Source: Leucobacter denitrificans (lineage in GTDB: Bacteria > Actinomycetota > Actinomycetes > Actinomycetales > Microbacteriaceae). From it: a DNA stretch of 64,000 nt. The stretch spans positions 1,922,001-1,986,000 of the forward strand of contig NZ_CP060716.1 in NCBI RefSeq assembly GCF_014396385.1, given 5' to 3'. Numbering within the stretch: position 1 is the stretch's first letter; the number at the start of each line of letters is the position of its first letter. Shown piece after piece: positions 11,231 through 36,228 of this stretch. A model generated the notes under the pieces. That model worked only from the letters and a program-made list of their open reading frames with translations. It had not been told where the DNA came from and made no database searches. The translations under genes were made by a program, and so were the position numbers.

Positions 11231-12264
11231 CTATCGCAGGGTGAAGCCGGTGCCGAGGGTGTCTGCGGGGTCGAGGGTGAACGCTTGCTCGCCGGTGAGG
11301 TATGCCGTGCCGGTCACGCTTGGAATGACGGTGGTGGTGCCGTCTGGCCGATCCGCACCTGCGACCCAGCTCGCAGTAAACACCGAATCGACGATCGACC
11401 TGTGCTCAAGCGTCTCATTTGCACCGAGCGTGCCGTCGTCGGCGAGCAGCGCAACCCGGGCGCCGGTGCCGGAGCCGCAGGGGGAGCGATCCACCTCGCC
11501 GTCGGCAAAGACCGTGATGTTGCGCTGGATCGGCCCCGACTCACTGCGGCCGAGGTCGTCCCAAATAATGGTGCCGTACACGCCCGAGAGCCTGGGGTCA
11601 TCGGCGTGCTGCGCCTGGGGGAGTCGTTGAGCGCCCACTTGATTTCGCGACCGATCGCGATGAGATCGGTGTAGTGCTGCGGATCGACAGAAAGCCCGAG
11701 ATCTGAGGCGCGCACCGACGCGTAGATCGCGCCGCTGAAACTCATATCGACTCGCACCGTGTCGCGCGAGGTATCGAGTTCGATCCCACGCGCGATCACG
11801 TGCGAGGGAACATTGCGGAACGTCGCCCCGACCAACGCGCCGTCGCGACGTTCCACGAGCGCAGCGACCCGACCCGAAGGCACGTCAATAGTGACCTCGG
11901 TGACGCCGTTCGGGTCGCTCTCGACGCGCCCGGTGTCGGTCGCCCAGACACCGAGCGCGATCGTGCCGTGACCACAGGCTGTCGAGAAGCCGTCTTTGTG
12001 CCAGAACAGCACGCCGAGATCCGCCCCGTTGTCGTTGGCCGGCACAATGAACCCGCCATACATGTCGGCGTGCCCGCGAGGTTCATTGCAGAGCAGCGCG
12101 CGCAGGTCGTCAATGCCGCCCGAGTTCTCGATCGCGGCGATACGACGCTCGCCGACCGTCGACCCCGGCAACGTGGGTACGTCGCTATGCACAATGCGGA
12201 AGGGCTCTCCCGCGGTGTGGTAGTCAGTCGTACGCACCCACGTGCGTGCTGCATTGCCTGCCAA
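11231..12264 (-). pseudogene. Second proline-racemase-family gene, frameshifted at a C5 run
   Basis: Paralogue of the epimerase at 9181-10188, starting at TTG 12264. The frame is intact through residue ~212 (KWALNDSP), then shifts; the remainder continues in another frame to a stop at 11231. At 11617-11621 the coding strand has five C; six C would join the halves into one protein of ~344 residues with ADDPRLSGVYGTI following directly. Both catalytic motifs survive, ACGHGTIALG before and DRSPCGSGTGAR after the break. It could be a trans-3-hydroxyproline dehydratase or second epimerase; two Cys favour the latter. The lesion may be a base-calling error, so the gene may well be functional. Confidence 0.8.
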
Positions 12265-12282
12265 TTGAACCTCTTACTTGGA

Positions 12283-13779
12283 CTATCTGCCGGGAACCAC
12301 GATCGACTTGGTCGTCGTGAATTCCTGCTCGATGGCCTCGTCACGCTTGTACGTAGCGAGACTCACGATGATCGCGGTGATGAGCGCGAACACGAAGCCG
12401 GGGAGCAGCTCGTACAGGTCGAAGATTCCGCCAGATGCGGCACCCCACGCAAATACCGTGATGGTGCCAACGACCATCGCCGAGAGCGCGCCCCAGTTGG
12501 TGAGCTTGCGCCAGTAGAGGCTGAGCAGGACGATCGGGCCGAATGCGGAACCAAAGCCTGCCCAGGCAAAGCCGACGAGACCCAGGATTGAGTCGTTCGG
12601 GGTAATCGCGAGCAGCGCAGCGACGATCGCCACCGCGAGCACGCACAAACGGCCGAGCAGCACGAGTGTCTTCTCTGCGGGCGGAGTCTTCCTGATTACT
12701 TTGAAGATATCTTCGACAAGTGCCGACGAGCACACGATGAGTTGACTCGAGAACGTGCTCATGATGGCGGCGAGCACGGCAGCGAGCACGAGACCAGCGA
12801 CGAGCGGATGCAGCAGTGCCTGTGACATGAGCAGCACGATCGTCTCGGGGTTACCGAGGTCGATATTGTTCCGTGCAACGTAAGCGATGCCGATGAAGCC
12901 CGAGAAGAGCGCGCCCGCGAGCGAGATGATCTGCCAGGTCACACCGATGCGCCTCGCGCTCTTTGCCTCAGACGGCTTGCGGAGCGCCATGAAGCGCACC
13001 ACAATGTGTGGCTGGCCGAAGTAGCCGAGACCCCAGGCGAGACCCGAGAGCACCCCGATGGTCGTGACCGAGCTCAGTCCGGTGCCGCCGAAGAGGTCGA
13101 AGTGGTTCGGACCGAGCTCGCGAATCAAAGACATCGCCTCTCCTACGCCGCCGACAGAGACGACGGCCGCGACCGGAACGACGATGAGCGCGATGACCAT
13201 CATGAGGCCCTGCACCACGTCGGTGAGGGAAGCGCCGAGGAAGCCACCGAACAGGGTGTACCCGAGCGTGATGACGGTGACGAGCACCATGCCCCAGATG
13301 TACTCGCCGTTGAATGTACTCTCGAAGAACACGCCGCCGGCGACCATTCCCGACGAGACGTAGAGGGTGAAGAAAACGAGGATGATGATGCTCGACACGA
13401 TGCGAAGCGAGCGGGTCTTATCGCGCGTGCGGTTCTCGAAGAAGCTGGGCAGCGTGATCGAGTTCTGCGACACCTCGGTGTAGGCGCGAAGGCGGGGAGC
13501 GACGACCAACCAGTTGAGGTAGGCGCCGAGCGTGAGGCCAATGGCGATCCACGCTTCAATGAGACCGGCGACATAGATCGCGCCGGGCAAACCCATAATG
13601 AGCCACCCAGACATGTCTGAAGCGCCAGCGCTGAGCGCCGCAACCCACGGTGGAAGCCCGCGGCCGGCGAGCATGTAGCCCTCGTGCCCCGAGGTTCGTC
13701 GGTACGCGATGTACCCGATGAGCAGCATCCCGGCGAAGTACGCGCCGAGTGCTATGTACAGCCATACCTGATCGGACAT
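12283..13779 (-). CDS. putP: Sodium/proline symporter PutP
   Basis: Membrane symporter of 498 residues in the solute:sodium symporter family. About thirteen hydrophobic segments run through the protein; family stretches include MSGWLIMGLPGAIYVAGL near residue 56, EVSQNSITLPSFFENR, and GYFGQPHIVVRFMA. These match proline transporters specifically. It sits between putA (96 bases upstream) and the racemase paralogue (18 bases downstream), so it probably supplies proline and perhaps hydroxyproline to both pathways. The C-terminal tail after the last membrane segment is short and hydrophilic. Confidence 0.92.
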   Translation of the reverse strand: MSDQVWLYIALGAYFAGMLLIGYIAYRRTSGHEGYMLAGRGLPPWVAALSAGASDMSGWLIMGLPGAIYVAGLIEAWIAIGLTLGAYLNWLVVAPRLRAYTEVSQNSITLPSFFENRTRDKTRSLRIVSSIIILVFFTLYVSSGMVAGGVFFESTFNGEYIWGMVLVTVITLGYTLFGGFLGASLTDVVQGLMMVIALIVVPVAAVVSVGGVGEAMSLIRELGPNHFDLFGGTGLSSVTTIGVLSGLAWGLGYFGQPHIVVRFMALRKPSEAKSARRIGVTWQIISLAGALFSGFIGIAYVARNNIDLGNPETIVLLMSQALLHPLVAGLVLAAVLAAIMSTFSSQLIVCSSALVEDIFKVIRKTPPAEKTLVLLGRLCVLAVAIVAALLAITPNDSILGLVGFAWAGFGSAFGPIVLLSLYWRKLTNWGALSAMVVGTITVFAWGAASGGIFDLYELLPGFVFALITAIIVSLATYKRDEAIEQEFTTTKSIVVPGR

Positions 13780-13833
13780 CTTTGTCCCCTTTCAACGGTT
13801 TACAGGTGTTCTGTTCTCTTTCAGCCTAACTAC

Positions 13834-13865
13834 GGGTCGGGCAGACTGCTAGGAATGCCCGACCC
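13834..13865. terminator. Hairpin between putA and putP
   Basis: A perfect 10-bp stem (GGGTCGGGCA with TGCCCGACCC) around a 12-base loop lies between the putA stop and the putP start. There is no clear T-run, so it may be a weak terminator, an mRNA-processing stem, or an attenuator that sets the putA to putP expression ratio. Confidence 0.45.
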
Positions 13866-13875
13866 TCGCAGATCG

Positions 13876-16800
13876 CTAGATCAACGAATCGGAGAGGTGA
13901 TTCGGTGTGCCGAATCGGTGTGCGGTAATCGAAACTGCCTGCTCGTGGAGGTATGGCAGTAGTTCCACGCGACCAGCCGAAACGACCGGGTTGCCGTAAA
14001 CAGCAACGTCGGGCTTGCCATCGGTCGCCTCGTAAATCGCGGCCACGATCTCGTCGCGTGACTCACCAGCAACCACCCGAATCCGAGCGCTCGCGTGCGG
14101 CCCCTGGGCTGCGGCAAGCTTTTCGACCCGCGACTTCCAGGCCTCGTCGTCTTCGAAGTGCACTGCGAACCCAAGGCGCTCGATCGCGGTGCGCAGGGGC
14201 TGCGGCAACGCTGTCGGTGAACTCACGGTCACTGCGCCCTTGGCGGCGGTCGCGGCGGCGAGTTCGCGCGCGATATGGTGGATCGGCGCGTCGGCACCTA
14301 TCCGCACCGTTACCGGCACGGGAAGGTAGCGCAGAATGTTGCGCTCGACCCCGAGCTGCGAGGCGTCGCGGGCAATACCGAACTCAGTCTCCCAAGCAGT
14401 CGCGTCGCTGCCGAGGGCCGCGCGCAACCAGCTGAGTTCGTCGCCTGTGGCACCTGACTGCTCTGCGGCGGTGAGGATGATCGCGGCGCGATGCAGCGGT
14501 GCACGCAGCTCTTGTGAGACTGGTGCGTCGATCCACGCGCCGAGACCGTGCAGGTAGTTCGGCCCGCCAGCCTTCGTACCGGCGCCGATTGCCGACTTCT
14601 TCCAGCCGCCGAAGGGCTGACGCTGCACGATTGCGCCGGTGATGCCGCGGTTCACGTAGAGGTTTCCGGCTTCGATGCGGCGCAGCCAGATGTCGAGCTC
14701 GTCGGCGTCGAGCGAGTGCAGGCCGCTCGTGAGTCCGTAGTCGATGTCGTTCACCATGTCGATTGCTTCGTCGAGAGTCTTCGCGGTCATGATGCCGAGG
14801 ATCGGACCGAAGTATTCGGTGAGGTGGTACTCGGAACCGCGCTTCACGCCGTAGCGAACACCGGGACTCCAGAGTTTGTTCTCGCCCTTCGCGTCGAGTG
14901 CGAGCGGGCTGTCTGACTCGAGCGGTGCTGGCTCGATCGCCCAGATCTCGCCCTCGCCGAGCGTCGTGAGCCCGCGCAGCAGCTTGCCCGACGGGGCCGA
15001 AATGACCGGGCCGATCTGTGTGCGCAGGTCTTCTGGCGTGCCAACCTTCATCGAATTGATCGCGTCGAGCAGCTGCCCGCGGAAACGTTTCGAGGTGGCG
15101 ACCGATCCGACGAGGATCACGAGCGATGCTGCCGAGCACTTCTGGCCAGCGTGGCCGAATGCTGACTGTGCGACGTCCTTCGCCGCGAGGTCGAGGTCGG
15201 CATTCGGGGTCACGATGATCGCGTTCTTGCCGCTCGTCTCGGCGAGGATCGGGAGATCCTTGCGCAACTCGCGGAACGTCACCGCCGTCTCATAGGCGCC
15301 GGTGAGGATCAGGCGATCCACACGGGGGTCAGCGACCAACTTCGAGCCGAGCGGCCGGTCTGCGAACTGCACGAGCTGCAGCACGTCGCGCGGCACGCCG
15401 GCCTCCCACAGCGCCTCAACCATCACAGCGCCCGAACGGGCCGACTGCGAGGCGGGCTTGATGATGACCGACGCGCCCGAAGCGAGGGCCGCGAGCGTGC
15501 CGCCGGCCGGGATTGCGACCGGGAAGTTCCACGGCGGAATCACCGCGATGAGCTTCTGCGAAACGTACTGAGCACCATCGACCTTCGCGACCTCCTGGCC
15601 GAGCGCCGCGTAGTAGTGCGCGAAGTCGATCGCCTCGCTCACCTCGGGGTCACCCTGATCGAGGGTCTTGCCACACTCCGAGCCCATGACCTCGAGCAGG
15701 TCGGCGCGGCGGCGCTCCATGATCTGGCCGGCGCGGTGCAGAACTCTCGCGCGCTCGTCAGGCGAGAGCGCTTGCCACGACTCGGAGGCCGCGATGCCGC
15801 GCTCGATCACTGTGTTGAGCTCAGCCTCGTCTTTCACCTGCGCGGCCGCAACTGCGTCGACGCCGAGCTTCGAGCCCACCATGCGCGAGGCGATGCCACG
15901 ACCCCACTCACGGTTGCCCGGCAGGTCTGGGTCAGTATCAGGGGTGTTCTCGAATCCCGCGAGACCCGTCTGGGTGCGCACCTTCACGCCGAGATCGTCG
16001 AGTTCTGGGTTCGATACTCGGCGGTCTTGCTGGCGGTTCGACGGCGGCACGTCGAGCTCTGCGTCGGTGCCATCACCGGTGATGTTCTCGAGGTCTGCGA
16101 GCGAGGCGAGGAATCGGTTCCTCTCGCGCTCGAAGAGCTCCTCGTTGTCGTTGAGCTCGAAGACTGCCGACATAAAGTTCTCGTGGCTCGCGCCCTCTTC
16201 GAGGCGGCGAATCAGATAAGCGATGGCAACGTCGAACTCTTCGGGCTTCACGACGGGGGTGTAGAGCAGCAGCGATCCAACCTCGCGGCGCACCGCCTCA
16301 GCCTGGCCGGTCGCCATGCCGAGCAGCATCTCGAACTCGATGCTGTCAGTCACGCCGCGGCTCTTTGCGAGCAGCCACGCGAGGGCGATGTCGAAGAGGT
16401 TGTGCCCCGCAATGCCCACGCGCACGTGCTTCACACGCTCGGGGTGCAGCGAGTAATCGAGCACTGCCTTGTAGCTCGTGTCGCTATCTTGCTTGGTGCC
16501 CCAGGTGGCGGCGGGCCAGCCGTGGATCGCAGCATCCACAAGCTCCATCGGCAGGTTTGCGCCCTTCACGAGGCGCACCTTGATGGGTGCCCCGCCGCGA
16601 GTGACGCGCTTCGCCGACCACTCCTGCAGGTGGATCATCGCGCCGAGCGCGTCGGGGAGATACGCCTGGAGCACGATGCCCGCTTCGAGATTCAAGAACT
16701 CGGGGCGGTCGAGGATCTTCGTGAACACCTCGAGGGTGAGGTCGAGATCCTTGAATTCCTCCATGTCGAGGTTGATGAACTTGTGCGGCGTCGATGCAGC

Positions 16801-17475
16801 GGCGCGCTCGAAGAGTGGCACGAGGTGATTTTCGATCTTTACGACCGCCTCGTCGAACGACCAGTGGTTGTGCGGCGCTACCGTTGACGACACCTTGATC
16901 GACACGTAGTCGACATCGTCGCGTGCGAGCAACTCGTGGGTGCCAGCGAGTCGGCGTTCAGCCTCACGCTCACCGAGAATCGCCTCGCCGAGCAGGTTGA
17001 TGTTCAGGCGCACGCCGTCGCGCTTGATCTTCGCGATCGCGGGGCCGAGCTTCGACTCGGTTGCGTCGACGATGAGGTGGCTCACCATCTGGCGAAGCAC
17101 CTTGCGCGCAATGGGAACAACTACGCCGGGGAGCGGTTTCGCGAACGCGCCGCCCAGCCCGATCGCGCCGCGCATGACACCCGGGAGGAACTTCGGGGTC
17201 AACGGCACGAGCTCCTTGAGCTTCTTCGCCGCTACGTCGAGATCTTCTGGGCGCACGACGCCGTCGACGAAGCCCACCGTGAAGTCGAGGCCGTTCGGGT
17301 CGCGGAGCACGCCAGCGAGGCGCTCGCCGGATGCATCTGCGGGAATCTCGGCGGCCTCTTCGAGCCAGCGGCGAACGAGCGCAATCGCGTCGTCGGCGAG
17401 GTCTTGCGGGCGCACGTTGACGTCAGCGTCAGCGAGTTCCTGAGGGCGAGCGGGTGCTGGTGGGGTGGTATTCAC
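13876..17475 (-). CDS. putA: PutA: proline dehydrogenase / L-glutamate-gamma-semialdehyde dehydrogenase
   Basis: Bifunctional enzyme that oxidises proline to glutamate; 1199 residues from GTG 17475, which follows GAGGAG at short spacing (a GTG at 17505 is the alternative). The N-terminal half is the FAD proline dehydrogenase barrel (for example INLLGEAILGEREAERRL, later HNLFDIALAW). The C-terminal half is an aldehyde dehydrogenase with LAETSGKNAIIV and the catalytic Cys of GHAGQKCSAAS. A further ~170-residue C-terminal region follows. There is no N-terminal ribbon-helix-helix domain, so it should not repress itself; the divergent LysR gene is the likely regulator. Confidence 0.95.
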   Translation of the reverse strand: MNTTPPAPARPQELADADVNVRPQDLADDAIALVRRWLEEAAEIPADASGERLAGVLRDPNGLDFTVGFVDGVVRPEDLDVAAKKLKELVPLTPKFLPGVMRGAIGLGGAFAKPLPGVVVPIARKVLRQMVSHLIVDATESKLGPAIAKIKRDGVRLNINLLGEAILGEREAERRLAGTHELLARDDVDYVSIKVSSTVAPHNHWSFDEAVVKIENHLVPLFERAAASTPHKFINLDMEEFKDLDLTLEVFTKILDRPEFLNLEAGIVLQAYLPDALGAMIHLQEWSAKRVTRGGAPIKVRLVKGANLPMELVDAAIHGWPAATWGTKQDSDTSYKAVLDYSLHPERVKHVRVGIAGHNLFDIALAWLLAKSRGVTDSIEFEMLLGMATGQAEAVRREVGSLLLYTPVVKPEEFDVAIAYLIRRLEEGASHENFMSAVFELNDNEELFERERNRFLASLADLENITGDGTDAELDVPPSNRQQDRRVSNPELDDLGVKVRTQTGLAGFENTPDTDPDLPGNREWGRGIASRMVGSKLGVDAVAAAQVKDEAELNTVIERGIAASESWQALSPDERARVLHRAGQIMERRRADLLEVMGSECGKTLDQGDPEVSEAIDFAHYYAALGQEVAKVDGAQYVSQKLIAVIPPWNFPVAIPAGGTLAALASGASVIIKPASQSARSGAVMVEALWEAGVPRDVLQLVQFADRPLGSKLVADPRVDRLILTGAYETAVTFRELRKDLPILAETSGKNAIIVTPNADLDLAAKDVAQSAFGHAGQKCSAASLVILVGSVATSKRFRGQLLDAINSMKVGTPEDLRTQIGPVISAPSGKLLRGLTTLGEGEIWAIEPAPLESDSPLALDAKGENKLWSPGVRYGVKRGSEYHLTEYFGPILGIMTAKTLDEAIDMVNDIDYGLTSGLHSLDADELDIWLRRIEAGNLYVNRGITGAIVQRQPFGGWKKSAIGAGTKAGGPNYLHGLGAWIDAPVSQELRAPLHRAAIILTAAEQSGATGDELSWLRAALGSDATAWETEFGIARDASQLGVERNILRYLPVPVTVRIGADAPIHHIARELAAATAAKGAVTVSSPTALPQPLRTAIERLGFAVHFEDDEAWKSRVEKLAAAQGPHASARIRVVAGESRDEIVAAIYEATDGKPDVAVYGNPVVSAGRVELLPYLHEQAVSITAHRFGTPNHLSDSLI

Positions 17476-17586
17476 GATTCTCCTCGAATTCTGCAGGGCA
17501 GACACGGCAAGCGGCCGGGCGCGGGTGGCCGTCGACTGCTACGGCTCTCTGCCTCCAGTGTGAATCGTTTCAAGCGTGAAGTACAG

Positions 17587-17608
17587 CAATAGTATCTACG
17601 CGTTATTG
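17587..17608. promoter_or_regulatory. Candidate LysR-type site between putA and the LysR gene
   Basis: An AT-rich dyad CAATA-N12-TATTG lies in the 168-bp divergent promoter region, about 35 bases upstream of the LysR start. Position and partial symmetry suit a LysR-type regulator controlling both genes, but the spacing is one base longer than the common T-N11-A form. Confidence 0.35.
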
Positions 17609-17643
17609 TTAAGTAAAACAGAATGATTTGAAGGTGGATCGAC

Positions 17644-18549
17644 ATGCTCGACATGAAACGATTGCGACTGCTCTGGGAGCTGTCGGCCCGCGGCACGGTC
17701 GTCGCCGTTGCCGAGGCGCTGAATTACAGCCCCTCGGCCGTGTCGCAGCAGCTCGCGCTCCTCGAGCGCGAGGCCGGTGTACCGCTGCTGCGCAAGGTCG
17801 GGCGCACCCTCGAACTCACCCCCGCCGCCGAGGTGCTCGTCGAAGAAACCGAGGGTCTGCTCGCCGGGCTCGAGCACGCAGAGGCCGCGCTGCACCGCCG
17901 CCACGCTGAGGTTTCTGGCACGATTCGTGTTGCGGTGTTCCAGACCGCTGTGCTCTCGATTATGCCGAAGGCGCTGCACAGTCTGCGATCCACATACCCC
18001 GCCCTGCGCGTGGAGATGGTGCAGTACGAACCCGAGATCGCGCTGCGCGAGACCTGGGGGCGAGGGTTCGATCTTGTGGTCGCCGAGCAGTACCCGGGGC
18101 ACGCGGCGCCGCACTTCGCGGGGCTGGATCGGCAGCCGCTCACGAGCGACTCGATCAAGCTGTGCGTGCCCGCTCACGATACAGACCCTGCATTCGAGGC
18201 TGTGACCTCGATTGAGCATGCGGCGGGGCTTCCGTGGGTGATGGAGCCGCGGGGTGCCGCGTCTCGGCACTGGGCCGAGCAGGCGTGCCGCGTCGCGGGG
18301 TTCGAGCCCGATGTGCGGTACGAAACGGCGGATCTGCAGGCGCACGTCAGGCTTATCGAGTCGGGGAACGCTGTCGCGATTCTGCCTGGGCTGGTGCAGG
18401 TCGGTCAGGCGGGCATGCTGCGCGAGGTGCAACTCGACGGTAAGCCTCGTCGCACGCTCTTCACGGCCGCCCGTGCTGCTGGCGGCATGCACCCGGGCAT
18501 CGTCGCGGTGCGCGAGGCACTCCAGTCAGTCGCCGCTTCGCTCGTGTAG
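17644..18549 (+). CDS. LysR-family transcriptional regulator divergent from putA
   Basis: Regulator of 301 residues. The N-terminal helix-turn-helix reads RGTVVAVAEALNYSPSAVSQ, followed by the linker helix and a periplasmic-binding-like effector domain starting near ISGTIRVAVF-type sequence at residue 92. Orientation divergent from putA, with only 168 bases between, makes it the likely regulator of proline catabolism with proline as possible co-inducer; this is inference from layout. The 5' end is preceded by GAAGGTGGA, an acceptable ribosome binding site. Confidence 0.9.
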   Translation: MLDMKRLRLLWELSARGTVVAVAEALNYSPSAVSQQLALLEREAGVPLLRKVGRTLELTPAAEVLVEETEGLLAGLEHAEAALHRRHAEVSGTIRVAVFQTAVLSIMPKALHSLRSTYPALRVEMVQYEPEIALRETWGRGFDLVVAEQYPGHAAPHFAGLDRQPLTSDSIKLCVPAHDTDPAFEAVTSIEHAAGLPWVMEPRGAASRHWAEQACRVAGFEPDVRYETADLQAHVRLIESGNAVAILPGLVQVGQAGMLREVQLDGKPRRTLFTAARAAGGMHPGIVAVREALQSVAASLV

Positions 18550-18568
18550 TTTCTGCGGATTCACACCG

Positions 18569-18689: not shown

Positions 18690-18695
18690 AGGCGC

Positions 18696-20654: not shown

Positions 20655-20729
20655 GAAATTACTGTACCGAGAGCCGTTGCGCGATCCCTGTGAGGGGTCA
20701 GGCGCTCGGGCGCTCAGCCAGGTGCGCGG

Positions 20730-22614: not shown

Positions 22615-23250
22615 TTACGCGCTGCCATCGGGCGTAAAGCTCAGCATGCGTTTCACGTGGCGGGCGATGATGTCGGTCTCAACGTTCACCCGATCTCCGG
22701 GTGCAAGCGCCCCGAGCGTGGTGGCCTCAAGTGTTTCGGGGATCAGCGAAACTTCGAACCACTGCTCGGGCTCAGACGCGTCAGAAATGTTCGACACGGT
22801 GAGCGAGGTGCCCGAGAGAGTGATTGACCCCTTGTCAACGAGCATCGGGGCAAGCTCGCGCGAAATTGAGAAGCGCAGCGTGCGCCAGGCGTCGCCGGGC
22901 GTGACCGTGAGCAACGTCGCAGTGCCGTCGACGTGGCCCTGCACGATGTGCCCGCCGAGCCTGCTATCGATGCGCGCAGCCCGCTCGAGATTCACGCGGC
23001 TGCCTCGCTGCAGTTCGCCGATTGTCGACATGTGGATCGTCTGAGCCATCACATCCGCAGTGAATGTGCCGCGCCCGAGCTCGTCATCGCCGAGCTCAAC
23101 GACGGTGAGACACACGCCCGACACCGCGATCGAGGCACCGTGCACGGCGTCGCTCGTCACGTGCGGTCCCGCGATCGTGATCCGCAACGAATCGGAGATG
23201 TGCTCGACCGAGAGCACCTCGCCGATCTCTTCGATGAGTCCTGTGAACAT
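22615..23250 (-). CDS. ribE: Riboflavin synthase alpha subunit RibE
   Basis: Catalyses the dismutation of two lumazine molecules to riboflavin; 211 residues. The internal duplication of the family is visible: MFTGLIEEIGEV with GVCLTV in the first barrel, GHIVQGHVDGTATLL at the start of the second, and LSGTSLTVSNI as the second copy of the ligand motif. The start codon shares a base region with the upstream reductase gene stop, consistent with one operon. Confidence 0.95.
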   Translation of the reverse strand: MFTGLIEEIGEVLSVEHISDSLRITIAGPHVTSDAVHGASIAVSGVCLTVVELGDDELGRGTFTADVMAQTIHMSTIGELQRGSRVNLERAARIDSRLGGHIVQGHVDGTATLLTVTPGDAWRTLRFSISRELAPMLVDKGSITLSGTSLTVSNISDASEPEQWFEVSLIPETLEATTLGALAPGDRVNVETDIIARHVKRMLSFTPDGSA

Positions 23251-23903
23251 TAGCGTTCCTCCTTTGGTACGACTGTTGTCGCTCGGATGAGCAGGTCGGC
23301 CCCGAGCTGCAGGGTTTCGGTCACGTGTAGGCGCCTGATGTCGGCGATGCTGTTCGCGCCAATGTCATTAAGGGCGAGCCGCGGGCCGCCGAGCAGCGCG
23401 GGGGCCACATAGACAAGCACCTCGTCGACGAGCCCGGCGCGAATGAGCGCACTCACAATCGTGGGGCCGCCCTCGACGAAGACGCTGTGGATCCCGAGTG
23501 CTTTCAAATGCTCGAGGTCTGCGGCGAGATCGTCGCCAGTAAGGCGAATCGGTTCGGCTACTGGTGTTCCAGACGTGCCGAGCGGGTGACCGAGCCTTGG
23601 GTGTTCGAGCAGCTTCGCGCCGCTGGGAATCTCGCGGCGCCCCACCACAACCGGCACGGGTTGCTCTTGGGATGGGACGAGGAGTTCGCCTGCGGGCGTG
23701 CGTGCGGTGAGCGACGGGTCGTCTGCGAGCACGGTGCCGGTTCCGACGAGGATCGCATCGGCTGCCGCCCGCCGCCGATGCACATCTGCGCGCGCCTCGG
23801 CTCCGGTGATCCACTGGCTCGACCCGTCGGCCGCTGCCGCGCGACCATCGAGAGTCTGCGCCCACTTCGCCGTAATGAAGGGCCTGTTGGGTGCGCTCGT
23901 CAT
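23250..23903 (-). CDS. ribD: RibD-type reductase domain as a separate protein
   Basis: 5-amino-6-(5-phosphoribosylamino)uracil reductase domain of 217 residues. The start region FITAKWAQTLDGRAAAADGSSQWITG and DAILVGTGTVLADDPSLTAR are typical of the C-terminal half of RibD; VFVEGGPTIVSALIRAGLVDE is the dihydrofolate-reductase-like end. In most bacteria this domain is fused to the deaminase; here its ATG overlaps the deaminase stop by four bases. Either the genes are naturally split and coupled, or one base is missing near the Gly-rich junction and a single RibD is encoded. Confidence 0.88.
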   Translation of the reverse strand: MTSAPNRPFITAKWAQTLDGRAAAADGSSQWITGAEARADVHRRRAAADAILVGTGTVLADDPSLTARTPAGELLVPSQEQPVPVVVGRREIPSGAKLLEHPRLGHPLGTSGTPVAEPIRLTGDDLAADLEHLKALGIHSVFVEGGPTIVSALIRAGLVDEVLVYVAPALLGGPRLALNDIGANSIADIRRLHVTETLQLGADLLIRATTVVPKEER

Positions 23904-24418
23904 GATCCGCCACCGCCCGTCGAACCGGCCGATGACCCTGCTCGCGCGTTGGCTGCGCTGCGTTCAACCCAGGATGCAAGCAGTGCCCGGGCCTCCTCCT
24001 CAAGCACGCCACCCACCGCCGGGATTCCTGCGGCTCGCAGCGTCGAGGCACCGCCCGCTGATTCCTGGCCCGGATCCGCCATGCCGTACACAACCTCGGC
24101 GAACCCCGCAGCGGAGAGTGCCTGTGCGCATGGGCCAGTGCGGCCCTGGTGATTGCAGGGTTCGAGCGTTACCACGACAGTGAGTCGGCGGGCTTCGGCG
24201 AGGTGCTCGTCGGACAGATGCTGCATCGCCGCGATCTCGGCGTGCGGGGTTCCCGCGCCTTCATGCCAGCCCTCGGCTACGAATTCGCCCTGGGGGCCGA
24301 GAATGACGCAGCCCACCTGGGGATTCACGTCGGTACTTGGGCCCCGCTCAGCAAGCGTGAGCGCGCGGCGCATGGCCGACTCAATCACCTCTGGTGAGAG
24401 TGTGCGCGACACGGGCAT
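23900..24418 (-). CDS. ribD: RibD-type deaminase domain as a separate protein
   Basis: Diaminohydroxyphosphoribosylamino-pyrimidine deaminase of 172 residues, first gene of the rib operon. The zinc-binding deaminase motif is present as GTPHAEIAAM and TLEPCNHQGRTGPCAQA, matching the HAE ... PCxxxGxxxxC pattern of RibD. I chose ATG 24418 (MPVSRTLSP) over a longer open frame. The C-terminal tail after the domain is low complexity, Ala/Ser then Gly, ending at the overlap with the reductase gene. Confidence 0.88.
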   Translation of the reverse strand: MPVSRTLSPEVIESAMRRALTLAERGPSTDVNPQVGCVILGPQGEFVAEGWHEGAGTPHAEIAAMQHLSDEHLAEARRLTVVVTLEPCNHQGRTGPCAQALSAAGFAEVVYGMADPGQESAGGASTLRAAGIPAVGGVLEEEARALLASWVERSAANARAGSSAGSTGGGGS

Positions 24419-24482
24419 TCTTGCTCCCTTAACGGGTACCCGGGGGCGGGTGCACGACACGTATGGCGCGAACCCGCGTTCC

Positions 24483-24612
24483 TCACATCCGGACTTGTGC
24501 GCTCACTTTCGCTTGCACATCACCGTCGGTACCGGAATTTCACCGGTTCAACCCCGCGGGTGCGGGGGTCGCGGACTCTCACCGCCGGTTCGGATTTTCA
24601 CCGACCCCGGAA
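24483..24612 (-). promoter_or_regulatory. FMN riboswitch (RFN element)
   Basis: On the minus strand the leader of the rib operon reads GGGGTCGGTGAAAATCCG, then CCGGCGGTGAGAGTCCGCGACCC, AACCGGTGAAATTCCGGTACC, GACGGTGA and AGTCCGGATG, in the conserved order of the RFN element. FMN binding would be expected to close the operon down, in actinobacteria usually by hiding the ribosome binding site of the first gene. It begins about 190 bases upstream of the deaminase start. Confidence 0.95.
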
Positions 24613-24688
24613 CACGTAATCAGCATACCCCCATGAGCCGCGGGCCTGCTCGCTAGAGTGCGAGCGTTCGCGGTGGGCGGATCGGAGC

Positions 24689-26632: not shown

Positions 26633-26646
26633 TTAAAATCCTCGGC

Positions 26647-27052: not shown

Positions 27053-27115
27053 CCTTCACGTTGCACGGCATGGCGACCGCAAGTTGTCGGTGGCCCTCTC
27101 TAGACTGACGGCGTT

Positions 27116-30100
27116 ATGCGCAGCTCAGTTACCGCCGTTCTCGTAGCTTCCCGTGGTGGGGAGTGGCTCGATGAGACCATCGCCGGAGTGAAAGCTCAGA
27201 CCAGGCGTCCGAATGCGATCATCGCTGTCAATAATGGTGGATCGGAGCGGGTCAGCTCACAGCTTGTCGAGGCGAGTTACGGCTCAGAAACAGACGGTTC
27301 GGCCCGGGTCATCGGTATTCAGTCGAAGGTGTCGTTTGGTCGGGCGGTCGACGCCGCTGTAAGCGCAGTCGCGCCGGGAGACCGGCCCGAGAGTGAGTGG
27401 ATCTGGCTCCTCAGCGAGGACTCGTGCCCCGAGCCCGAAGCTCTCGCACGCATTCTCGCGCGGGTTGAGAAGGCCCAGTCGGTTGTTGTTGCTGGCCCGA
27501 AGCTCGTGGACTGGGATCGACCTGAACGAATTATCGAGCTCGGACAAAGCCTCACGCAGGGTGGATCGCGTTGGCTGCTCCGCAGGCAAGAACTTGATCA
27601 GCAGCAGCACGATCACCTCGAAGATGTGCTCGGTGTAGGCCCGGTCGGCATGCTCATTCGCCGAGACGTGTGGGAGGAGCTGCGGGGGTTCGATCCCGCG
27701 TACACAAGCTACGACGACGGCCTCGATTTCTCGGTTCGCGCGAGGCTTGCGGGCTACCGCGTTGAGGTTGCCCCGGAGTCTCGGGTGCGCTTTGCGAGAA
27801 GCGGTGTCGCTGGCCCTCGAATTGACCGCGCCCGCAAGGTGATGCGCACCGCGCACCGCCAGGCGCGCACCGCACATCTGCACCGTCGCATTGCGTACGC
27901 GCCAGCGTTTTCCGCCTTCTTCCTTTGGCTCGGGCTGCCGCTGCTTGCGGTCGTGCGAGTGTTCTGGATGCTCATCCGCGAGCAGCCCGGCAATATGTTC
28001 GGCGAGTTCATTGCTGCATTCGCGGTGTTCTTCCGGCCCGCGTCGCTGCTCGCCTCTCGTAAACGCGTGAAACAGGCGTCGAAAGTCGGGTGGGCCGCGG
28101 TCCGCCCCTGCGCACCGATCGCAAGACCGTGCGCACCGCGAAAATGATCGATCGCGAGGCCATTCTCGCGTCTCAGGGCCGGGTGCCTCGCGAGATGCAC
28201 TTTATTTCAACCGGTGGGCTTGCGGTGCTCGTCGCAATGGTCGCGGCGACGATCGCGCTCACCTGGTGGGCAGTCTCGAAAACGAGCCTCATCGGTGGTG
28301 GCATCGCACCCCTGAGTGCGATTGGCGAGCTATGGCGCAACACCCGTGCGCTCGATGGTGTCGCAGCAGACCCGTTTGCGTGGGTGCTTGCGGTGCTCGG
28401 CTCGCTCACATTCTGGAACCCGTCGCACGCACTCGTCATTGTCATCGTGCTTGCGGTGCCCCTTGCGGGCCTCGGTGCGTGGATCTGGGCAGCACAGATC
28501 AGCGAATCTGTGGCCGCCCGCGCCGTCACCGCGATCGGCTTCGCGCTCAGCCCGGTGCTGCTCGGTTCGATCGCTTCCGGGCGGATCGCACCACTCATTC
28601 TTGCCGCGGTGATGCCGTGGTTGCTGCTTGCGGCAACGCGATGCCGAGAATCCTGGAGCTGGGCCGGCACCGCTTCGCTGCTCGCGGCCGTCGCGCTTGC
28701 CTGCGCGCCGATCCTCATTCCTGTGGGTCTCATTTTCTTGGTCTTTGGTATTCTCAGCCGCCCGCGGGGCACACTCCGAGTGCTGTCGGTGGCGATCGCG
28801 CCAGCCGTGCTCTTCGCCCCGAAGATCATCGCGACGGTATTCGATGGTCGCCCGCTCGACCTGCTCATGGATCCGGGCATCGCTCTGCCGTATGAGCCCG
28901 GCAACCCGTGGCACATGCTCCTAGGGTTCCCCGAATTCGGTCTTGAAGGCTGGGCAAGCATTTTCGACACGATCGGACTCGGCGGTGCGCCTGCAACGCT
29001 GCTCGTCGGCGTGCTCATGCTGCCGCTCGCACTGCTCGCGCTCCTCGGGCTTTACACGGGCCGCGTTGCCGTCACCGTGCTGCATGCGCTGCTCGGCGCG
29101 CTCGGCATCATCACCGCGGTCGCGTCGACGCACCTCATGCTCACGACGAACGGCGACACGCAGGTTGCAGTATGGACAGGCTCTGGACTCGTCTTGTACT
29201 GGCTCGCGATTCTCGGGCTTGCCGCGGTTGGGGCTGACACGGCCCGCGCCGCAGCTCCGGCCGTCGTGACCGTTGCCCTCATTGGCGCGCTCATCGCAGC
29301 TGGCCCGCTCGCGTTCCGCCTCGTGACCGGCAACGTGCCCATGGCCTCGGGCGACACCCAGGTGCCCGCAATTGTGCAAGTGGCTGGCGAGCAAAATCCG
29401 AACACGCGCACACTCGTGATTTCGGCGACCGGAGAGCGCAGCCTGCGGGCTGACATTCTCACCGGAACCGGCACCAGGCTCGACGCACTTCGCACAGCGA
29501 ACAGCGTCGGTGGCCCGACCGAAGAAGATGAGCAGATCGCTGAGCTCGTCGGCGCACTCGCGAGCATTGGCGGCGCTGACGTCGGCGAAGCGCTCGCCGC
29601 AGAGCGCGTGAACTACGTGCTGCTGCAGCCTGGCAGTGACGCCGCAGAAGAGACGCTCATTCAGCGCACGCTCGACCAGCACGCCGAGCTCGCGACCGTC
29701 GGCGAGACCGCGCAGGGTCTGCTCTGGCGCGTTTCCGACTCTGCGGTGAATCGCGACGAACTTGGCGACGACTCGGTGGCGCTTGAGGGCACATCATTCG
29801 CGGGTCACACTGTGTGGATCGCGCAGCTCATCGTGCTCTTCGCAATCTTCCTGTTGGCACTTCCCACCGGTGAAGTGGTCGAGCGCCCAGAGCGACGCAA
29901 ACGCCCGGGACGGTCGCGCAAGTCGAAAGCGGCGCCGACGCAAGCAGCGGCACCGGCCGCAGCCGAGTCGACTGAGACAGTGTCTGATGAAGTGGACTCA
30001 GTGGCGCCCTCAGAACCAGTAGAGGCAACCACCGAAGCTACTCACCCGGCTGATCCGGTGGCCCATGACGCGCTCCGCGAGCATCACGCCCCAGACGAAA

Positions 30101-30231
30101 CGTTCTCGATCACCGAGACCGCGCCGGCGGTGACCTTCGAGGAGGCTCCACCGGTTGATCACGAGGCATCCGGCGATCCACAGGTTGCACAAGAAGCACA
30201 GACGGCCCAGGATCCGGAGGGAGAGAAATAA
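27116..30231 (+). pseudogene. Large membrane glycosyltransferase, GT2 domain plus multi-span region, frameshifted at a C4 run
   Basis: The first frame (27116-28147) encodes a family 2 glycosyltransferase domain (AVLVASRGGEWLDETIAGVK, later SEDSCPEPEALARIL and SYDDGLDFSVRARLAGY) and ends in a membrane segment. A second frame to 30231 encodes about ten membrane segments and an Ala/Glu-rich, probably disordered C-terminal tail. At 28105-28108 there are four C; a fifth would join them as ...WAAVRP-LRTDRKTVRTAKMIDRE... into one protein of ~1038 residues. The second frame has no ribosome binding site of its own near 28144. Predicted cell-envelope polysaccharide enzyme. If the gap is real, two proteins of 343 and about 695 residues result. 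Confidence 0.75.
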
Positions 30232-31621
30232 TGACCGAACGTACGAAGCTCGTAACGGGCGGTGCACGCGCTCTCACCGGTGTACTGATCACCGCCGCGG
30301 CTGCCGCTGGAGCGCTCCTCATCGGCACGCTGAATTTCCCGACCGTTGAGAGCGAACCAAGGGCCACCCAGGTCGACACGATGCAGACTGGCGCGCGCGA
30401 ACTCGTGTGTGCGGGTGCCTTTGCCGAGCTTGGCGCCGATCCATCGCGGCCCGACGTCGCTCTGCCAGTCGGCCGCACGAATGTGTCGGTGAGTGGCGAT
30501 GGTGAGCGGAAAGAACTGGGGTCGAGCGACACTGATTCGACGAGCGTCGGCGGTGCTGCCGTATTCACCGGCACGATGAGCGAGCCGCTTGCCGCTGCGC
30601 AGATTCAGCAACTCGATACCGCGACGCTCTCGGGCACGGTCGCGGGCGAGTGCGTCGAACCAGTGAACGAGCAGTGGTTGCTCGGTGGTGCCAGCATGCT
30701 TGGGTATTCGACGACCCTGAGCCTTGGTAACCCGGGGTCGGTCGCTGCTACCGTGCACATCTCGGTGTTCGACGAGAACGGCAAGATCGACGACCAGCAA
30801 ACTTCTGGAGTCATCGTCGCGCCGCAGTCGCAGCAGATCATCTCGCTCAACGGATACGCGCCCGACAGTGAGCGCTTCGCCGTTCGCGTGACGAGCACCG
30901 GTGCTCCCGTCGGTGCGAGCTTGAGTGTCTCGCAGATCGACGGCATCAACCCCGTAGGCGCAGCAACTGTGACGCGCCAAGTGCGTGCTGAGACGGTATC
31001 CGTTGTTCCCGGGGTCGCAAACGAGGCCGTCGGCAATCACGGCGACGGCGACGCTGACTCGTTCCCAGTGCGCGTGCAGGCGATCGCGCCAGGCGAAGCA
31101 GCGGGCACCGCTGAGGTATTCGCACTGAGTGCCGAGGGCGAGCGCATCTCCCTTGGGGGATCGAATTGCAGCCAGGCACACTCAGCGAGCTCGAGGTCGT
31201 CACCTGGCCAAAGAGCGCCAATGCGGTGGTTGTTGAGTCCGAGGTGCCGGTGTTTACTGCGGTCGGTGGATCAGCGAACAACGACACAGCCCACGATTTT
31301 GACTGGTTCATCCCGGCCCCAGAACTCTCGGCAGACACTGAACTGCGCGCCGCGATCGTGCCGGGCGGCAAACTCATTCTCACGAATAGCGGATCGGAGC
31401 CAGCAACGGTGACGATTAGCAGTGACGACGATTCCGCTCCACGCACCGTCGAGGTGCAGGCGGGAAGCGCTGTGCCAACCGATGCGAAGGGCAGCGTGAC
31501 GATCGAAAGCACCGCCCCGGTTTCGGCAGGTGTGCGCGTGCTCTCTGGCGGAGCGATTGCGGGCTACCCGGTGATCCCAAGCTCGGAGCCCGACGGCGAA
31601 CTCACCATCTACACCAGGTGA
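30231..31621 (+). pseudogene. DUF5719 family envelope protein, frameshifted at a G5 run
   Basis: Predicted secreted or membrane-anchored protein. An N-terminal hydrophobic segment (ALTGVLITAAAAAGALLIG) is followed by a long beta-rich domain with STTLSLGNPGSVAATVHISV, typical of DUF5719. The start ATG shares a base with the glycosyltransferase stop and follows GGAGGGAG. At 31155-31159 five G are present; six would fuse the halves as SLGGIELQPGTLSELEVV into ~463 residues ending at 31621. The family is always found near envelope glycosyltransferases in actinobacteria; its function is unknown. Confidence 0.78.
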
Positions 31622-31641
31622 CCGCTGATTAGACTGGTGGC

Positions 31642-32070
31642 ATGAACGTTCGCCGCACCCCTGGCCGTGGCACGCCCACCCGCCACGGGCGTCGGCCGAT
31701 CCGCTCATCGATCACCGGGCCTGCATTGCCGAACCCGCACAGCCGCGTCAATCGGTTCGACTCAGACGCTCGTGGCGTCGTCGAGTTTCTGCAGTCGATG
31801 TTTCCCGAAGAGTTGCACGATGTGCAGATCGGGTTTCAGACTGTGCCGACGGGGCTCGGCACGAGCAACAACCCGCTGCTGTACTCAGTGGATCGCAAGG
31901 CGAGAACGATCATGATGTACCGCATGCCGATTCAGCGCGCGAGAGGGTTGCACGTGAATGACGACGAGCATCGCCGGTATTTTGTTGAGCACTGCGTGTA
32001 TCTCGCGGTGTGTGAATACCTCGGCAAGGAGCCGTGGGATCTGCTTCCGGGCCGCTTCGATCACTTCTGA
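31642..32070 (+). CDS. Metallopeptidase-like family protein (zincin-like fold) without HExxH
   Basis: Protein of 142 residues. After a basic 25-residue N-terminus comes a domain resembling the actinobacterial metallopeptidase family found beside whiB2 and mtrA (Rv3259-like by position). The sequence expected to hold HExxH reads VEHCVYLAVCEYLG, with a single His and no following HxxG, so peptidase activity is doubtful. It ends in LLPGRFDHF. Function unknown; conservation of position suggests a role with the neighbouring envelope genes. Confidence 0.75.
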   Translation: MNVRRTPGRGTPTRHGRRPIRSSITGPALPNPHSRVNRFDSDARGVVEFLQSMFPEELHDVQIGFQTVPTGLGTSNNPLLYSVDRKARTIMMYRMPIQRARGLHVNDDEHRRYFVEHCVYLAVCEYLGKEPWDLLPGRFDHF

Positions 32071-32119
32071 AACTGCCAGCCTCCCATTCTTTTGAGCGTT
32101 TCCCGACATAATGGGAATC

Positions 32120-32802
32120 ATGAGCGCACGAATCCTTGTAGTGGACGACGACAGGGCACTTGCCGAGATGCTGAGCATGGTCTTGCAGGGCGAGGGTTCT
32201 TGGTTGAGCACGCATATGACGGGCCTACCGCGGTGGATCAGTTTCGTGCGAGCCGCCCCGACCTCGTGCTGCTCGACGTGATGCTTCCGGGTCTCGACGG
32301 CATTGGGGTGTGTGAACAGATTCGCGCAGAATCTGGCGTACCGATCATCATGCTCACCGCTCGCACCGACACTCGCGATGTCGTTCGCGGGCTTGAGGTT
32401 GGTGCCGATGACTATGTTGTGAAGCCGTTCAACCCGGCCGAGCTTATCGCGCGAATTCGCGCGCGCCTTCGCGAGCCGCAGGACGACGTGAGCGAAACGC
32501 TCGCGATCGGCGACCTGTCAATCGACGTTGCGGGCCACCAGGTGACGCGCAATGGCGAGATCATTCCGCTGACACCGCTCGAGTTCGATCTCCTCGCGAT
32601 CCTCGCGCGCAAGCCTCAGCAGGTGTTTACCCGTGAGGTGCTGCTCGAGAAGGTGTGGGGCTACCAGTACAAGGCCGACACTCGCCTCGTGAACGTGCAC
32701 GTGCAGCGTTTGCGCGCCAAGATCGAGGTCGATCCTGATCATCCCGTCATCGTCACGACTGTGCGAGGCGTCGGGTACCGCGCGGGTGCACGCGCAGAAT
32801 AA
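32120..32802 (+). pseudogene. mtrA: MtrA response regulator, frameshifted at a T2 run (probable sequence error)
   Basis: OmpR-type regulator of the MtrAB system controlling envelope and division genes. It starts at ATG 32120 (MSARILVVDDDRALAEMLSM). At 32197-32198 the sequence has TT where TTT would give GEGFLVEHAYDG; as given, the first frame ends near 32280. The remainder is intact: receiver domain with the phospho-accepting Asp in LVLLDVMLPG, Lys in YVVKPF, and a winged helix ending EKVWGYQYKADTRLVNVHVQRL. Restored length is 227 residues, as in other MtrA proteins. mtrA is essential in mycobacteria, so real loss is improbable. Confidence 0.88.
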
Positions 32803-32810
32803 CTGGGCAC

Positions 32811-34544
32811 ATGGCTGAGACGGGGTCACGCGGCAGCACACGGCGCGCGTGGCGCCGTGTGAGGCTATTTGCGCAGCGCACCTGGCTACGAATCAAGCGG
32901 CTGGTTCGGCCGATCCTCGACCCCTTCATCACACTGTGGTCGCGCTCGCTCATGGTGCGCACCATGACAATCACCGGTGTCGTGACCGGCGCGATGATTG
33001 CGAGCGCTGGCGTCTTCGTGCTCACGAGCGTGAGCAACGACCTGTACTCGTCGCGACGCGACCAGGCTCTCCAAGACTCGGCGCGAGCGACAGTCGCCGC
33101 GCAGGGGCTTCTCGATTCGTTCGATACGGCGGATCGTGGCGGCCTCTCCTCACTCGCAAGCTCTGTGACGCAGACCGTGCAAGACACCTCGGCGAGCCAG
33201 ATGATCTTCGTGCGTCGCCAGATCGGGCAGACACCGTTTCTTGAGATTCCATCGTCGTTCGACACGACCTCGGTGCTCGTGCAGGCTGTCTCAGCCGAGC
33301 TCACGGCGTCGGTGCGGAGTGATGGCGAGCCGCAGCACTGGCAACCCGTCACCTTCTACCGAGACGGTGGCGACTCCTCGCCGGGCATCATCGTTGCGTC
33401 ATCGCTCACCTTCCCATCAGGCGCGGGCGTGTTCGACCTGTATATCGGTTACGACCTCGCCGACACCGAGCAAACGCTCGCGTTCGTCGCGCGCACCCTG
33501 CTGCTCACAGCCATCGCGATGATGCTGTTCATCGGCCTGCTCGTACTGGTCATCTCGCGAATCGTGTTCAGGCCGATCCGCGTCGCAGCAGACACGAGTC
33601 GACGGCTCGCCGCAGGCGAGGCAGACGCACGCATGCCGCGCCAGCACGACGAGCACTTCGACGTGCTTTCCGACGGCTTCAACGACATGGCAGACACCCT
33701 GCAGGCCCGCATTCGCGAACTCGATCAGCTTTCGATCATGCAGCAGCGATTCGTGTCAGACGTGTCGCACGAGCTGCGCACCCCACTCACTACGATCCGC
33801 CTCGCAAGTGAGGTGCTCAAGGGTGAGCAGGATTCGCTCGGCGCGGGGCAACAGCGCGCCGTCGAGGTGCTGAGCACGCAGGTGGAGCGCTTCGAGCTGC
33901 TGCTCACCGACCTGCTCGAGATCTCGCGCTATGACGCGGGCCGAGTCACCCTTGAAACCGAGCCCACGAACCTCGTGCACCTCGTTGACGAGGTCGTCGC
34001 GTCACTGCAGCAACTCTCACCAAGTGTCATCGAAATTCGTGCGCTGGGCGGCTACACGCCGGTCGATGTCGATGCGCGGCGAATCAGGCGGATCGTCTCG
34101 AACCTCGTCGGCAACGCCATCGAACACGGCGAAGGCCACCCCATCGTGGTCACCATCGACTCAAACGCAGATGCCACCGCGATCGCCGTGCGCGACTGGG
34201 GTGTGGGCATGAGCGAGCAGTCGGTTACGCACGTGTTCGATAGATTCTGGCGAGCCGATCCATCGCGCAAACGAACGCTCGGAGGTACCGGCCTCGGGCT
34301 CGCCATCGCGCGCGAAGACGCCGCGGTGCACGGCGGATTGCTCGACGTATGGTCGCGACTCGAAGAGGGCTCGCAATTTCGCCTCACCCTGCCGAAGCGA
34401 GAAGACGTCACCGACTACATGTCACCGATACCGCTCGTTCCCGAAGACGTTGACTCGAGCACCTACCAGACCGACGTCACCGGCGGGTGGCTCAAACGAC
34501 CGTTCCGCCGAATCCTCCGAGCACCGAGGGAGGGACGCTCATGA
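32811..34544 (+). CDS. mtrB: Sensor histidine kinase MtrB
   Basis: Membrane histidine kinase of 577 residues, partner of MtrA. Two membrane segments (about residues 50-74 and 228-252) bracket an extracytoplasmic sensor region. A HAMP linker follows (FRPIRVAADTSRRLAAGEAD), then the dimerisation helix with His320 in SDVSHELRTPLTT, and the ATPase domain with NLVGNAIEHGEG, VRDWGVGM and GGTGLGLAI. The gene starts 8 bases after mtrA and overlaps lpqB by ATGA. The N-terminus is strongly basic. Confidence 0.95.
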   Translation: MAETGSRGSTRRAWRRVRLFAQRTWLRIKRLVRPILDPFITLWSRSLMVRTMTITGVVTGAMIASAGVFVLTSVSNDLYSSRRDQALQDSARATVAAQGLLDSFDTADRGGLSSLASSVTQTVQDTSASQMIFVRRQIGQTPFLEIPSSFDTTSVLVQAVSAELTASVRSDGEPQHWQPVTFYRDGGDSSPGIIVASSLTFPSGAGVFDLYIGYDLADTEQTLAFVARTLLLTAIAMMLFIGLLVLVISRIVFRPIRVAADTSRRLAAGEADARMPRQHDEHFDVLSDGFNDMADTLQARIRELDQLSIMQQRFVSDVSHELRTPLTTIRLASEVLKGEQDSLGAGQQRAVEVLSTQVERFELLLTDLLEISRYDAGRVTLETEPTNLVHLVDEVVASLQQLSPSVIEIRALGGYTPVDVDARRIRRIVSNLVGNAIEHGEGHPIVVTIDSNADATAIAVRDWGVGMSEQSVTHVFDRFWRADPSRKRTLGGTGLGLAIAREDAAVHGGLLDVWSRLEEGSQFRLTLPKREDVTDYMSPIPLVPEDVDSSTYQTDVTGGWLKRPFRRILRAPREGRS

Positions 34545-36228
34545 TCCACACTCGAATTCGCAGGCGCGCGAAACGCCTGGCGCAACTCGCGCTCGCCGCA
34601 GTGGCGGCGGTGTCGCTCGCGGCCTGCGCCGCGGTGCCGGGGGATGGGCCGGTGCAGTTGGGTCTGTCTGATCTACAGCAGGCCGAGCGGCTCGTGCAGT
34701 TCAGTGCGTCGGGCCCGTCGGCGGGTGACAGCCAGGAGCAGCTGGTGCGCGGATTCTTGCTCGCGGCAAACTCGAGCGCAGACGACTACGCGGTCGCGCG
34801 CGAGTTTCTCGCGACGCCGTACGCCTCGCAGTGGGATCCGTACGACGGTGCGCTCGTGTACGAGGGCACAAAGCCGTACCGCGCCGACGGCGAGAATGCC
34901 GGCATGCTGTCGCTCGCGATCGTCGCGAACGTCGACGCCGCGGGGTCGCTTCTTCCCGTCGAGTCGGGCGCGAGTACTGAGCTTAGGTTCGAGTTCGTGC
35001 GGCAGGGCGAAGAGTGGCGCATTTCGTCGGCCCCGAGTGGCGTGATTGTGGATCGCTCGAGCTTCACCACCGTTTGGTCTGCGCACCAGCTGTACTTCCT
35101 CGGCCCGGGGAGCGCATGGTCGCCGACCCGCGCTGGTTCCTGTCACGTACCGCGCTCGCGACCGAGGTTGTGACCTCGCTCATCGAAGGACCGAGCGCGC
35201 GGCTCTCGCAGGTCGTGCACTCCGGATTCCCGCCTGGCGTGCGACTCACGAAGGGCACCGTGACCGTGGCCGACGGGCTCGCACGCGTCGATCTCACGGG
35301 CGACGGACTCGAGAATGACTTGGCGCAGCGCGAGATACACGCGCAGCTGCGGTCGAGCCTGCAATCGGTACCCGGCGTCAACCGGGTGGAGCTGCTCATC
35401 GACGGAGTCGCGGTTGCCGACCCATCGAACCCCATCTCCGACGAGCCCGCGAGCCAGGGTGCGATGAAACCCGTCGGGTTTGTCGATGGCACCTTCGGCA
35501 TTATTTCGGCCGCTGAAGCCGAGCCGATCACAGACATCAGCGAGTTCGTTGAGTCGCTCGACGCCAATGCTGTTTCCGTGTCCCGCTCACGCACGGTCGC
35601 AGCGGTGCGCAATAGTGATGGCGTCAGCATCATTTCCGGTGGATCGGTCGCGCTCATCGACCAGCGGCGAGCGCTGCTCGAACCGAGCGTCGATGACGAT
35701 CTGTGGGCGTGGACTGTCAGTGCCGCAGATCCGACCGTGATTCGGGTCACGACTGCCGATGGGGCGCAGCACGCCTTCTCGGCGCCGTGGCTTGCAGACC
35801 TCGACGTGCGAACGCTGCGCGTGGCGCCCGGGGGCAGCCTCGTCGCTGCCTACATCAACGACGGCGCTAACAGCAGGGTGCTCGTGGCCGGGGTGATTCG
35901 CGATAACGACGGAGTGCCGACCGGTGTGAGCGAGCAAGCCGACGTGGAGATGTGGGTCGGAGGCGAAGCGATTGACTTTGACTGGGTCGACTCGCAGCGC
36001 TTCGTCGCGCTGAGCAAGCAAGGCAACGCGGGCAAGGTGACCGTGGGAGGCCCCGGCATGTTCTCTGTCGAGCAGGGGTCGGTGCCAAACGCGGTGCACG
36101 TCGCGGGCGGGGGGAGCCGTGCGCAGATTCGCGTCGCGACCTCGGACGGTGAGTTCTACGCGCCGCAGGGCAGCAGCGGCTGGCAGCAGGTGGCGAACTC
36201 GGTCGAGCTGCTCGGTAAGCGCGGGTAG
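34541..36228 (+). pseudogene. lpqB: Lipoprotein LpqB, frameshifted at a G4 run (probable sequence error)
   Basis: Extracytoplasmic lipoprotein that modulates MtrB signalling in related bacteria. It starts at ATG 34541 overlapping mtrB; the signal peptide ends in the lipobox SLAAC. A GerMN-like domain and a beta-propeller-like C-terminal region follow. At 35107-35110 there are four G; five would continue the frame as FLGPGERMVADPRWFLSRTALATEVV. Restored length is about 562 residues, near the LpqB norm. As given, the first frame ends at 35173 and the rest lacks a start of its own. Confidence 0.85.

What the first reader, a model, noticed from the sequence alone, without database searches (positions are those of the whole stretch)
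11617..35110. Five genes each broken by one apparently missing base in a homopolymer run
C5 at 11617-11621, C4 at 28105-28108, G5 at 31155-31159, T2 at 32197-32198 and G4 at 35107-35110: in every case adding one base of the same kind restores a continuous family-length protein. All five are deletions and all lie in runs. Two affected genes, mtrA and lpqB, are core genes. This points to systematic run-length under-calling in the assembly rather than decay, so annotations derived from it will be wrong in the same way.
Basis: partly seen in the sequence, partly recalled or inferred. Interest (0 to 1): 0.75.

Follow-up and report, generated by a model that had tools for sequence, protein, structure and literature searches.

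The report
Five genes split by assembly errors
Five genes of a Leucobacter-type bacterium look broken in this sequence, but they very probably are not: the assembly seems to have dropped single letters at short runs of G or C, and the same fault shows up in an essential gene elsewhere in the genome.

Summary
The window belongs to a 2.40-Mb single-contig Leucobacter-like genome. In all five genes (proline-racemase family, GT2 glycosyltransferase, DUF5719, mtrA, lpqB) two halves of one conserved protein lie in neighbouring frames, one letter short; aligned relatives keep one frame.

The fault is genome-wide. In 311 aligned genes (318 kb; window plus 27 sampled 20-kb stretches) 10 breaks were well supported, plus mtrA. 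All 11 shift the same way; no supported insertion or internal stop was found. Nine of the 10 sit at G/C runs of at least 4 (6.9% of random places do). One is thrS, whose only over-cutoff locus is split. The same scan of a complete relative gave no supported deletion. Constraint persists after the breaks, though slightly weaker in 7 of 10 genes.

This supports rare, run-length-dependent under-calling in the assembly over decay or programmed frameshifting. Corrections: relatives do not support the T2 run at mtrA, and at sites 1 and 3 the missing letter need not belong to the run. No reads were available, so the error is inferred. Biologically ordinary; useful as a warning about annotations.

The parts
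11231..12264 (-). Proline racemase / trans-3-hydroxyproline dehydratase family gene in two frames (11314-12264 and 11231-11638); run at 11617-11621
   Evidence: Family match split at profile about 211-220; G003 protein aligned across the break, one letter short; codon-usage frame step
27116..30231 (+). GT2 glycosyltransferase gene in two frames (27116-28147 and 28090-30231); run at 28105-28108
   Evidence: 14 reference sets, same sign; Pfam GT2 domains in the first piece; intact 1031-aa relative P0044, 85% identical to the second piece
30231..31621 (+). DUF5719 protein gene in two frames (30231-31412 and 31166-31621); run at 31155-31159
   Evidence: 12 reference sets, same sign; DUF5719 in the first piece
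32120..32802 (+). mtrA, response regulator of MtrAB, N-terminus in another frame; break near 32190-32198
   Evidence: Only over-cutoff mtrA locus of the genome, split into two frames; 31 of 38 spanning DNA hits place the extra letter between GGG and TTC
34487..36228 (+). lpqB, MtrAB accessory lipoprotein, in two frames (34487-35173 and 35014-36228); run at 35107-35110
   Evidence: Profile split 3-180 and 182-552; 15 reference sets, same sign; intact 562-aa relative P0001, 93% identical over 93% of the second piece
32811..34544 (+). mtrB, sensor kinase of MtrAB, intact; lies between two broken genes
   Evidence: Over the MtrB cut-off in one frame; no break in the alignment

Best explanation
The five breaks are sequencing or assembly errors: the consensus is one letter short at or beside short G/C runs, and the organism very probably carries intact genes. 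Shown here: the frame steps, their single direction, their G/C-run context, their presence in thrS and other conserved genes elsewhere in the genome, and continued constraint on both sides. Inferred: that the letters are missing only from the assembly, probably a long-read consensus without enough polishing by accurate reads. The platform is not known to me.
For: 10 supported deletions, 0 insertions and 0 stops in 311 genes / 317,970 aligned bases; control G003: 0 supported deletions in 317 genes / 321,782 bases. Reference-free frame step in one direction at 11 of 11 sites. 9 of 10 counted events within 6 bases of a G/C run of at least 4, against 6.9% of 20,000 random coding places. If the lost letter belongs to the run, 2 of 1235 G/C 4-runs, 4 of 234 5-runs and 5 of 20 6-runs were shortened, and none of 448, 99 and 5 A/T runs. 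thrS and mtrA: the only over-cutoff loci are split, while hisS, looked up likewise, is one open frame. Intact relatives of LpqB and of the glycosyltransferase. False deletions, most often after four to five equal letters, are described for long-read assemblies (PMC12007338, passages).
Against: No reads and no second assembly of the strain. The overall run spectrum shows no deficit of long runs (G/C 6-to-5 ratio 0.085 here, 0.071 in G003). pN/pS is higher after the break than before it in 7 of 10 genes, against 53 of 98 intact genes split at like places. No event was at an A/T run, whereas PMC12007338 found more errors at A/T runs. The two rRNA operons showed no error that I could recognise (little power).
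Confidence: 0.93

Rival explanations
1. Real, very recent one-letter slippage mutations, as in early genome reduction or a mutator lineage: some of these genes are truly dying.
For: The genome (2.40 Mb) is smaller than the same-genus genomes of at least 98% completeness (2.8-4.1 Mb). Slippage also favours runs and rises with run length (recalled). pN/pS is higher after the break in 7 of 10 genes.
Against: 0 supported stops and 0 insertions in 311 genes. thrS, an essential gene with one over-cutoff locus, is hit. pN/pS after the breaks is 0.10-0.50, against a median of 0.23 and quartiles of 0.15-0.33 in 90 intact genes, so none has long been free of constraint.
Confidence: 0.055
2. Programmed frameshifting or transcriptional slippage lets these split genes make full-length proteins.
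For: The breaks lie at runs, and one conserved protein continues across each.
Against: The aligned relatives carry the genes of the window in one frame, the genes have unrelated functions, and no common slip motif is seen in the contexts listed.
Confidence: 0.01
3. Phase variation by changing run length, the assembly having caught the 'off' state.
For: Single-letter changes in runs are the usual form of phase variation (recalled).
Against: Runs of 3-5 letters are far shorter than known phase-variable tracts (recalled), and a tRNA synthetase or the core regulator mtrA are not switchable surface functions.
Confidence: 0.005

Closest known systems
Gene-fragmenting homopolymer indel errors of long-read assemblies (as profiled for Kastor, PMC12007338; passages seen)
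   Same: Mostly false one-letter deletions at runs, often of four to five letters, that split otherwise conserved genes.
   Different: There A/T runs were hit more often than G/C runs; here all 10 counted events are at G/C letters, in a genome of about 60% GC. The rate here is low, and the platform is unknown.
Pseudogenes of reduced genomes
   Same: Frameshifts in recognisable genes; a small genome for the genus.
   Different: No supported stops or insertions, an essential gene is hit, and constraint persists after the breaks.

Membership tests
Assembly run-length under-calling | Single-letter losses, one direction only | tested here: met
   10 of 10 supported events are deletions; 11 of 11 frame steps in one direction
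Assembly run-length under-calling | Events at runs, rising with run length | tested here: met
   9 of 10 at G/C runs of at least 4; 2 of 1235, 4 of 234, 5 of 20 (on the assumption that the lost letter belongs to the run; doubtful at sites 1, 3 and 4)
Assembly run-length under-calling | Spread over the genome without regard to gene importance | tested here: met
   6 events in 27 sampled stretches outside the window, thrS among them
Assembly run-length under-calling | Accurate reads contradict the consensus | not testable with these tools
   No reads available
Pseudogene decay | Mixed lesions: stops, insertions and deletions | tested here: not met
   10 deletions, 0 insertions, 0 stops supported in 311 genes; 2 stops, 2 insertions and 4 deletions without enough flank left out, mtrA among these deletions
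Pseudogene decay | Relaxed constraint after the break | tested here: inconclusive
   pN/pS after the break 0.10-0.50, of the order of intact genes, but higher than before the break in 7 of 10 against 53 of 98 intact genes
Programmed frameshifting | Frame change and slip site kept in relatives | tested here: not met
   Aligned relatives have one frame at the window sites; for the six sites elsewhere only G003 was compared

The most novel reading that the evidence does not exclude
The shorter sequences are real: a Leucobacter lineage with a strong tendency to lose single G/C letters in short runs, living with split essential genes such as thrS by routine frameshifting or slippage during expression.
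Probability: 0.02. Interest if true: 0.8.

Novelty: not a real feature. Interest (0 to 1): 0.12.

Why it matters
Annotations built on this assembly will list false pseudogenes and truncated proteins, mtrA, lpqB and thrS among them. They may also hold proteins that look intact but have a wrong end: at L044:7032-8012 one 327-aa frame runs through a break. Claims of gene loss in this small Leucobacter genome need read support.

Tried and rejected
A first frameshift scan with longest-ORF references gave many false events: 131 stops, 34 insertions and 49 deletions in 338 alignments. Many of its references were wrong-strand shadow ORFs or frames drawn across rRNA. I dropped that count and repeated the scan with references chosen by codon usage. 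In the repeat, 8 events without enough flank (2 stops, 2 insertions, 4 deletions, mtrA among the deletions) were left out of the 10; all are listed. The control had 5 such events (2 stops, 2 deletions, 1 insertion).

I first read three changes in a DEAD-box helicase gene as losses in this genome. One search showed that this genome's copy is one open frame and that it is the relative G003's copy that is out of frame; corrected in notebook entry 2.

The rRNA comparison was uninformative: the two operons align without gaps over 4,871 bases, and the indels against G003 go both ways. A general deficit of long runs was looked for and not found. Paper searches did not identify the strain or its platform. 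Protein searches (the last two list only the best 120) showed nothing more than 93% identical, so no second assembly of the strain. The split of ribD into two frames (window 23250-24460) is shared by relatives and is no error.

Full report
What the window is. It lies at 1,922,001-1,986,000 of a 2,404,302-base single-contig genome, 98.5% complete. Its mtrB matches Leucobacter best (up to 76% identity, up to 75% in the same genus). Leucobacter is a genus of Microbacteriaceae. The strain was not identified.

The five sites. In each gene two overlapping open frames carry consecutive parts of one protein. The racemase-family pieces cover profile 7-220 and 211-335, the lpqB pieces 3-180 and 182-552. 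mtrA has a single over-cutoff locus in the genome, profile 19-219, with profile 1-33 beside it in another frame. Relatives' proteins aligned to the window change frame at sites 2, 3, 4 and 5, in 14, 12, 6 and 15 reference sets, always with the same sign. Site 1 was aligned to one relative, G003; besides, of the best 120 listed homologues of its first piece most are 335-350 aa long and match only about two thirds of the piece. DNA alignments show one more letter in relatives at the sites, with some alignments gapped otherwise. Intact relatives exist: a 562-aa LpqB, 93% identical over 93% of the C-terminal piece, and a 1031-aa glycosyltransferase, 85% identical to the second piece. The other 40 of the 45 aligned window genes carry no supported break; one of them has an uncounted insertion near its N-terminus.

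Two corrections to the observation. At mtrA, 31 of 38 spanning hits put the relatives' extra letter between GGG and TTC, where it is A, C or G, never T (several loci are one genome fetched twice). The T2 attribution is thus not supported. At sites 1 and 3 relatives' codons leave open whether the missing letter belongs to the run at all.

Genome-wide test. I took 27 stretches of 20 kb from the same genome and aligned relatives' proteins with a frame-tolerant method (references over 1300 aa left out; 360 of 500 candidate pairs aligned). After filtering (at least 50 aligned residues, 50% identity, score 120, half of the reference covered, overlaps removed) 311 genes and 317,970 bases remained. 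Events were counted only with at least 25 aligned residues of at least 50% identity on either side. Result: 10 deletions, 0 insertions, 0 stops; 8 weaker events were not counted. The same procedure on sampled stretches of the complete relative G003 gave 0 deletions, 3 insertions in one gene and 1 stop in 317 genes and 321,782 bases, with 5 weaker events not counted; the 3 insertions lie in G003's own copy of a DEAD-box helicase gene. With mtrA the total in this genome is 11, five of them in the window. The intact G003 counterparts of the six others match thrS and hemW above the families' cut-offs, and, below cut-offs, trmL, a UvrD/AddA-type helicase, LysR-type regulators and an amine-transporter family.

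Independent of any reference, codon usage steps by one frame in the same direction at 11 of 11 sites. Nine of the 10 counted events lie within 6 bases of a G/C run of at least 4, against 6.9% of 20,000 random coding places. If the lost letter belongs to the run, 2 of 1235 G/C 4-runs, 4 of 234 5-runs and 5 of 20 6-runs were shortened, and none of 448, 99 and 5 A/T runs (mtrA counted at its G3). Most runs are thus called correctly, and the overall run spectrum shows no deficit.

Error or mutation. thrS has one locus over the family cut-off; it covers profile 104-563, and profile 1-89 lies just before it in another frame. hisS, looked up in the same way, is one open frame. pN/pS against relatives after the breaks is 0.10-0.50; 90 intact genes have a median of 0.23 and quartiles of 0.15-0.33. 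Against my reading, it is higher after the break than before it in 7 of 10 genes, while of 98 intact genes split at like places 53 were higher downstream. With 10 genes, some with short first pieces, this is weak, but a slight relaxation is not excluded. No nonsense change was supported among 311 genes. Decay should give mixed lesions and spare essential genes; programmed frameshifting should leave slip sites in relatives. Neither is seen. The pattern is that described for long-read assemblies: mostly false deletions, most often after four to five equal letters, though that study found more errors at A/T runs (PMC12007338, passages seen). Other papers were seen only in search listings.

Local clustering. 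Five of the 11 events fall in 24 kb. The first 36 kb of the window are richer in GC (0.640 against 0.605) and in G/C runs of 5 or more (0.97 against 0.54 per kb) than the rest of it, but hardly richer in such runs than the other sampled stretches (0.91 per kb). The window came to me because of this cluster, so I draw nothing from it; locally low read depth is possible.

Verdict. The breaks are real in the sequence and very probably not in the organism. The finding is right in substance, ordinary in kind, and worth a quality flag on this assembly.

Noticed in passing
window 23250-24460 (-), with 24473-24618: RibD is encoded as two overlapping genes (deaminase, reductase) behind an FMN riboswitch. 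Leucobacter locus L003 has the same split, so it is not one of the errors.
   Followed up: partly
L141:13246-14841 (relative G003): G003's own DEAD-box helicase gene carries three one-letter differences that put about residues 57-184 out of frame, whereas the copy in the window's genome is one open frame of 510 aa.
   Followed up: partly
L044:7032-8012 (window's genome, 547,032-548,012): A frame break hidden inside an open frame of 327 aa: the frame runs on through the break, so annotation would show an intact gene with a wrong N-terminal part.
   Followed up: partly
whole genome G000: At 2.40 Mb and about 60% GC in the sampled part the genome is smaller than the same-genus genomes of at least 98% completeness (2.8-4.1 Mb) and lower in GC than the sampled part of G003 (65%).
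   Followed up: no
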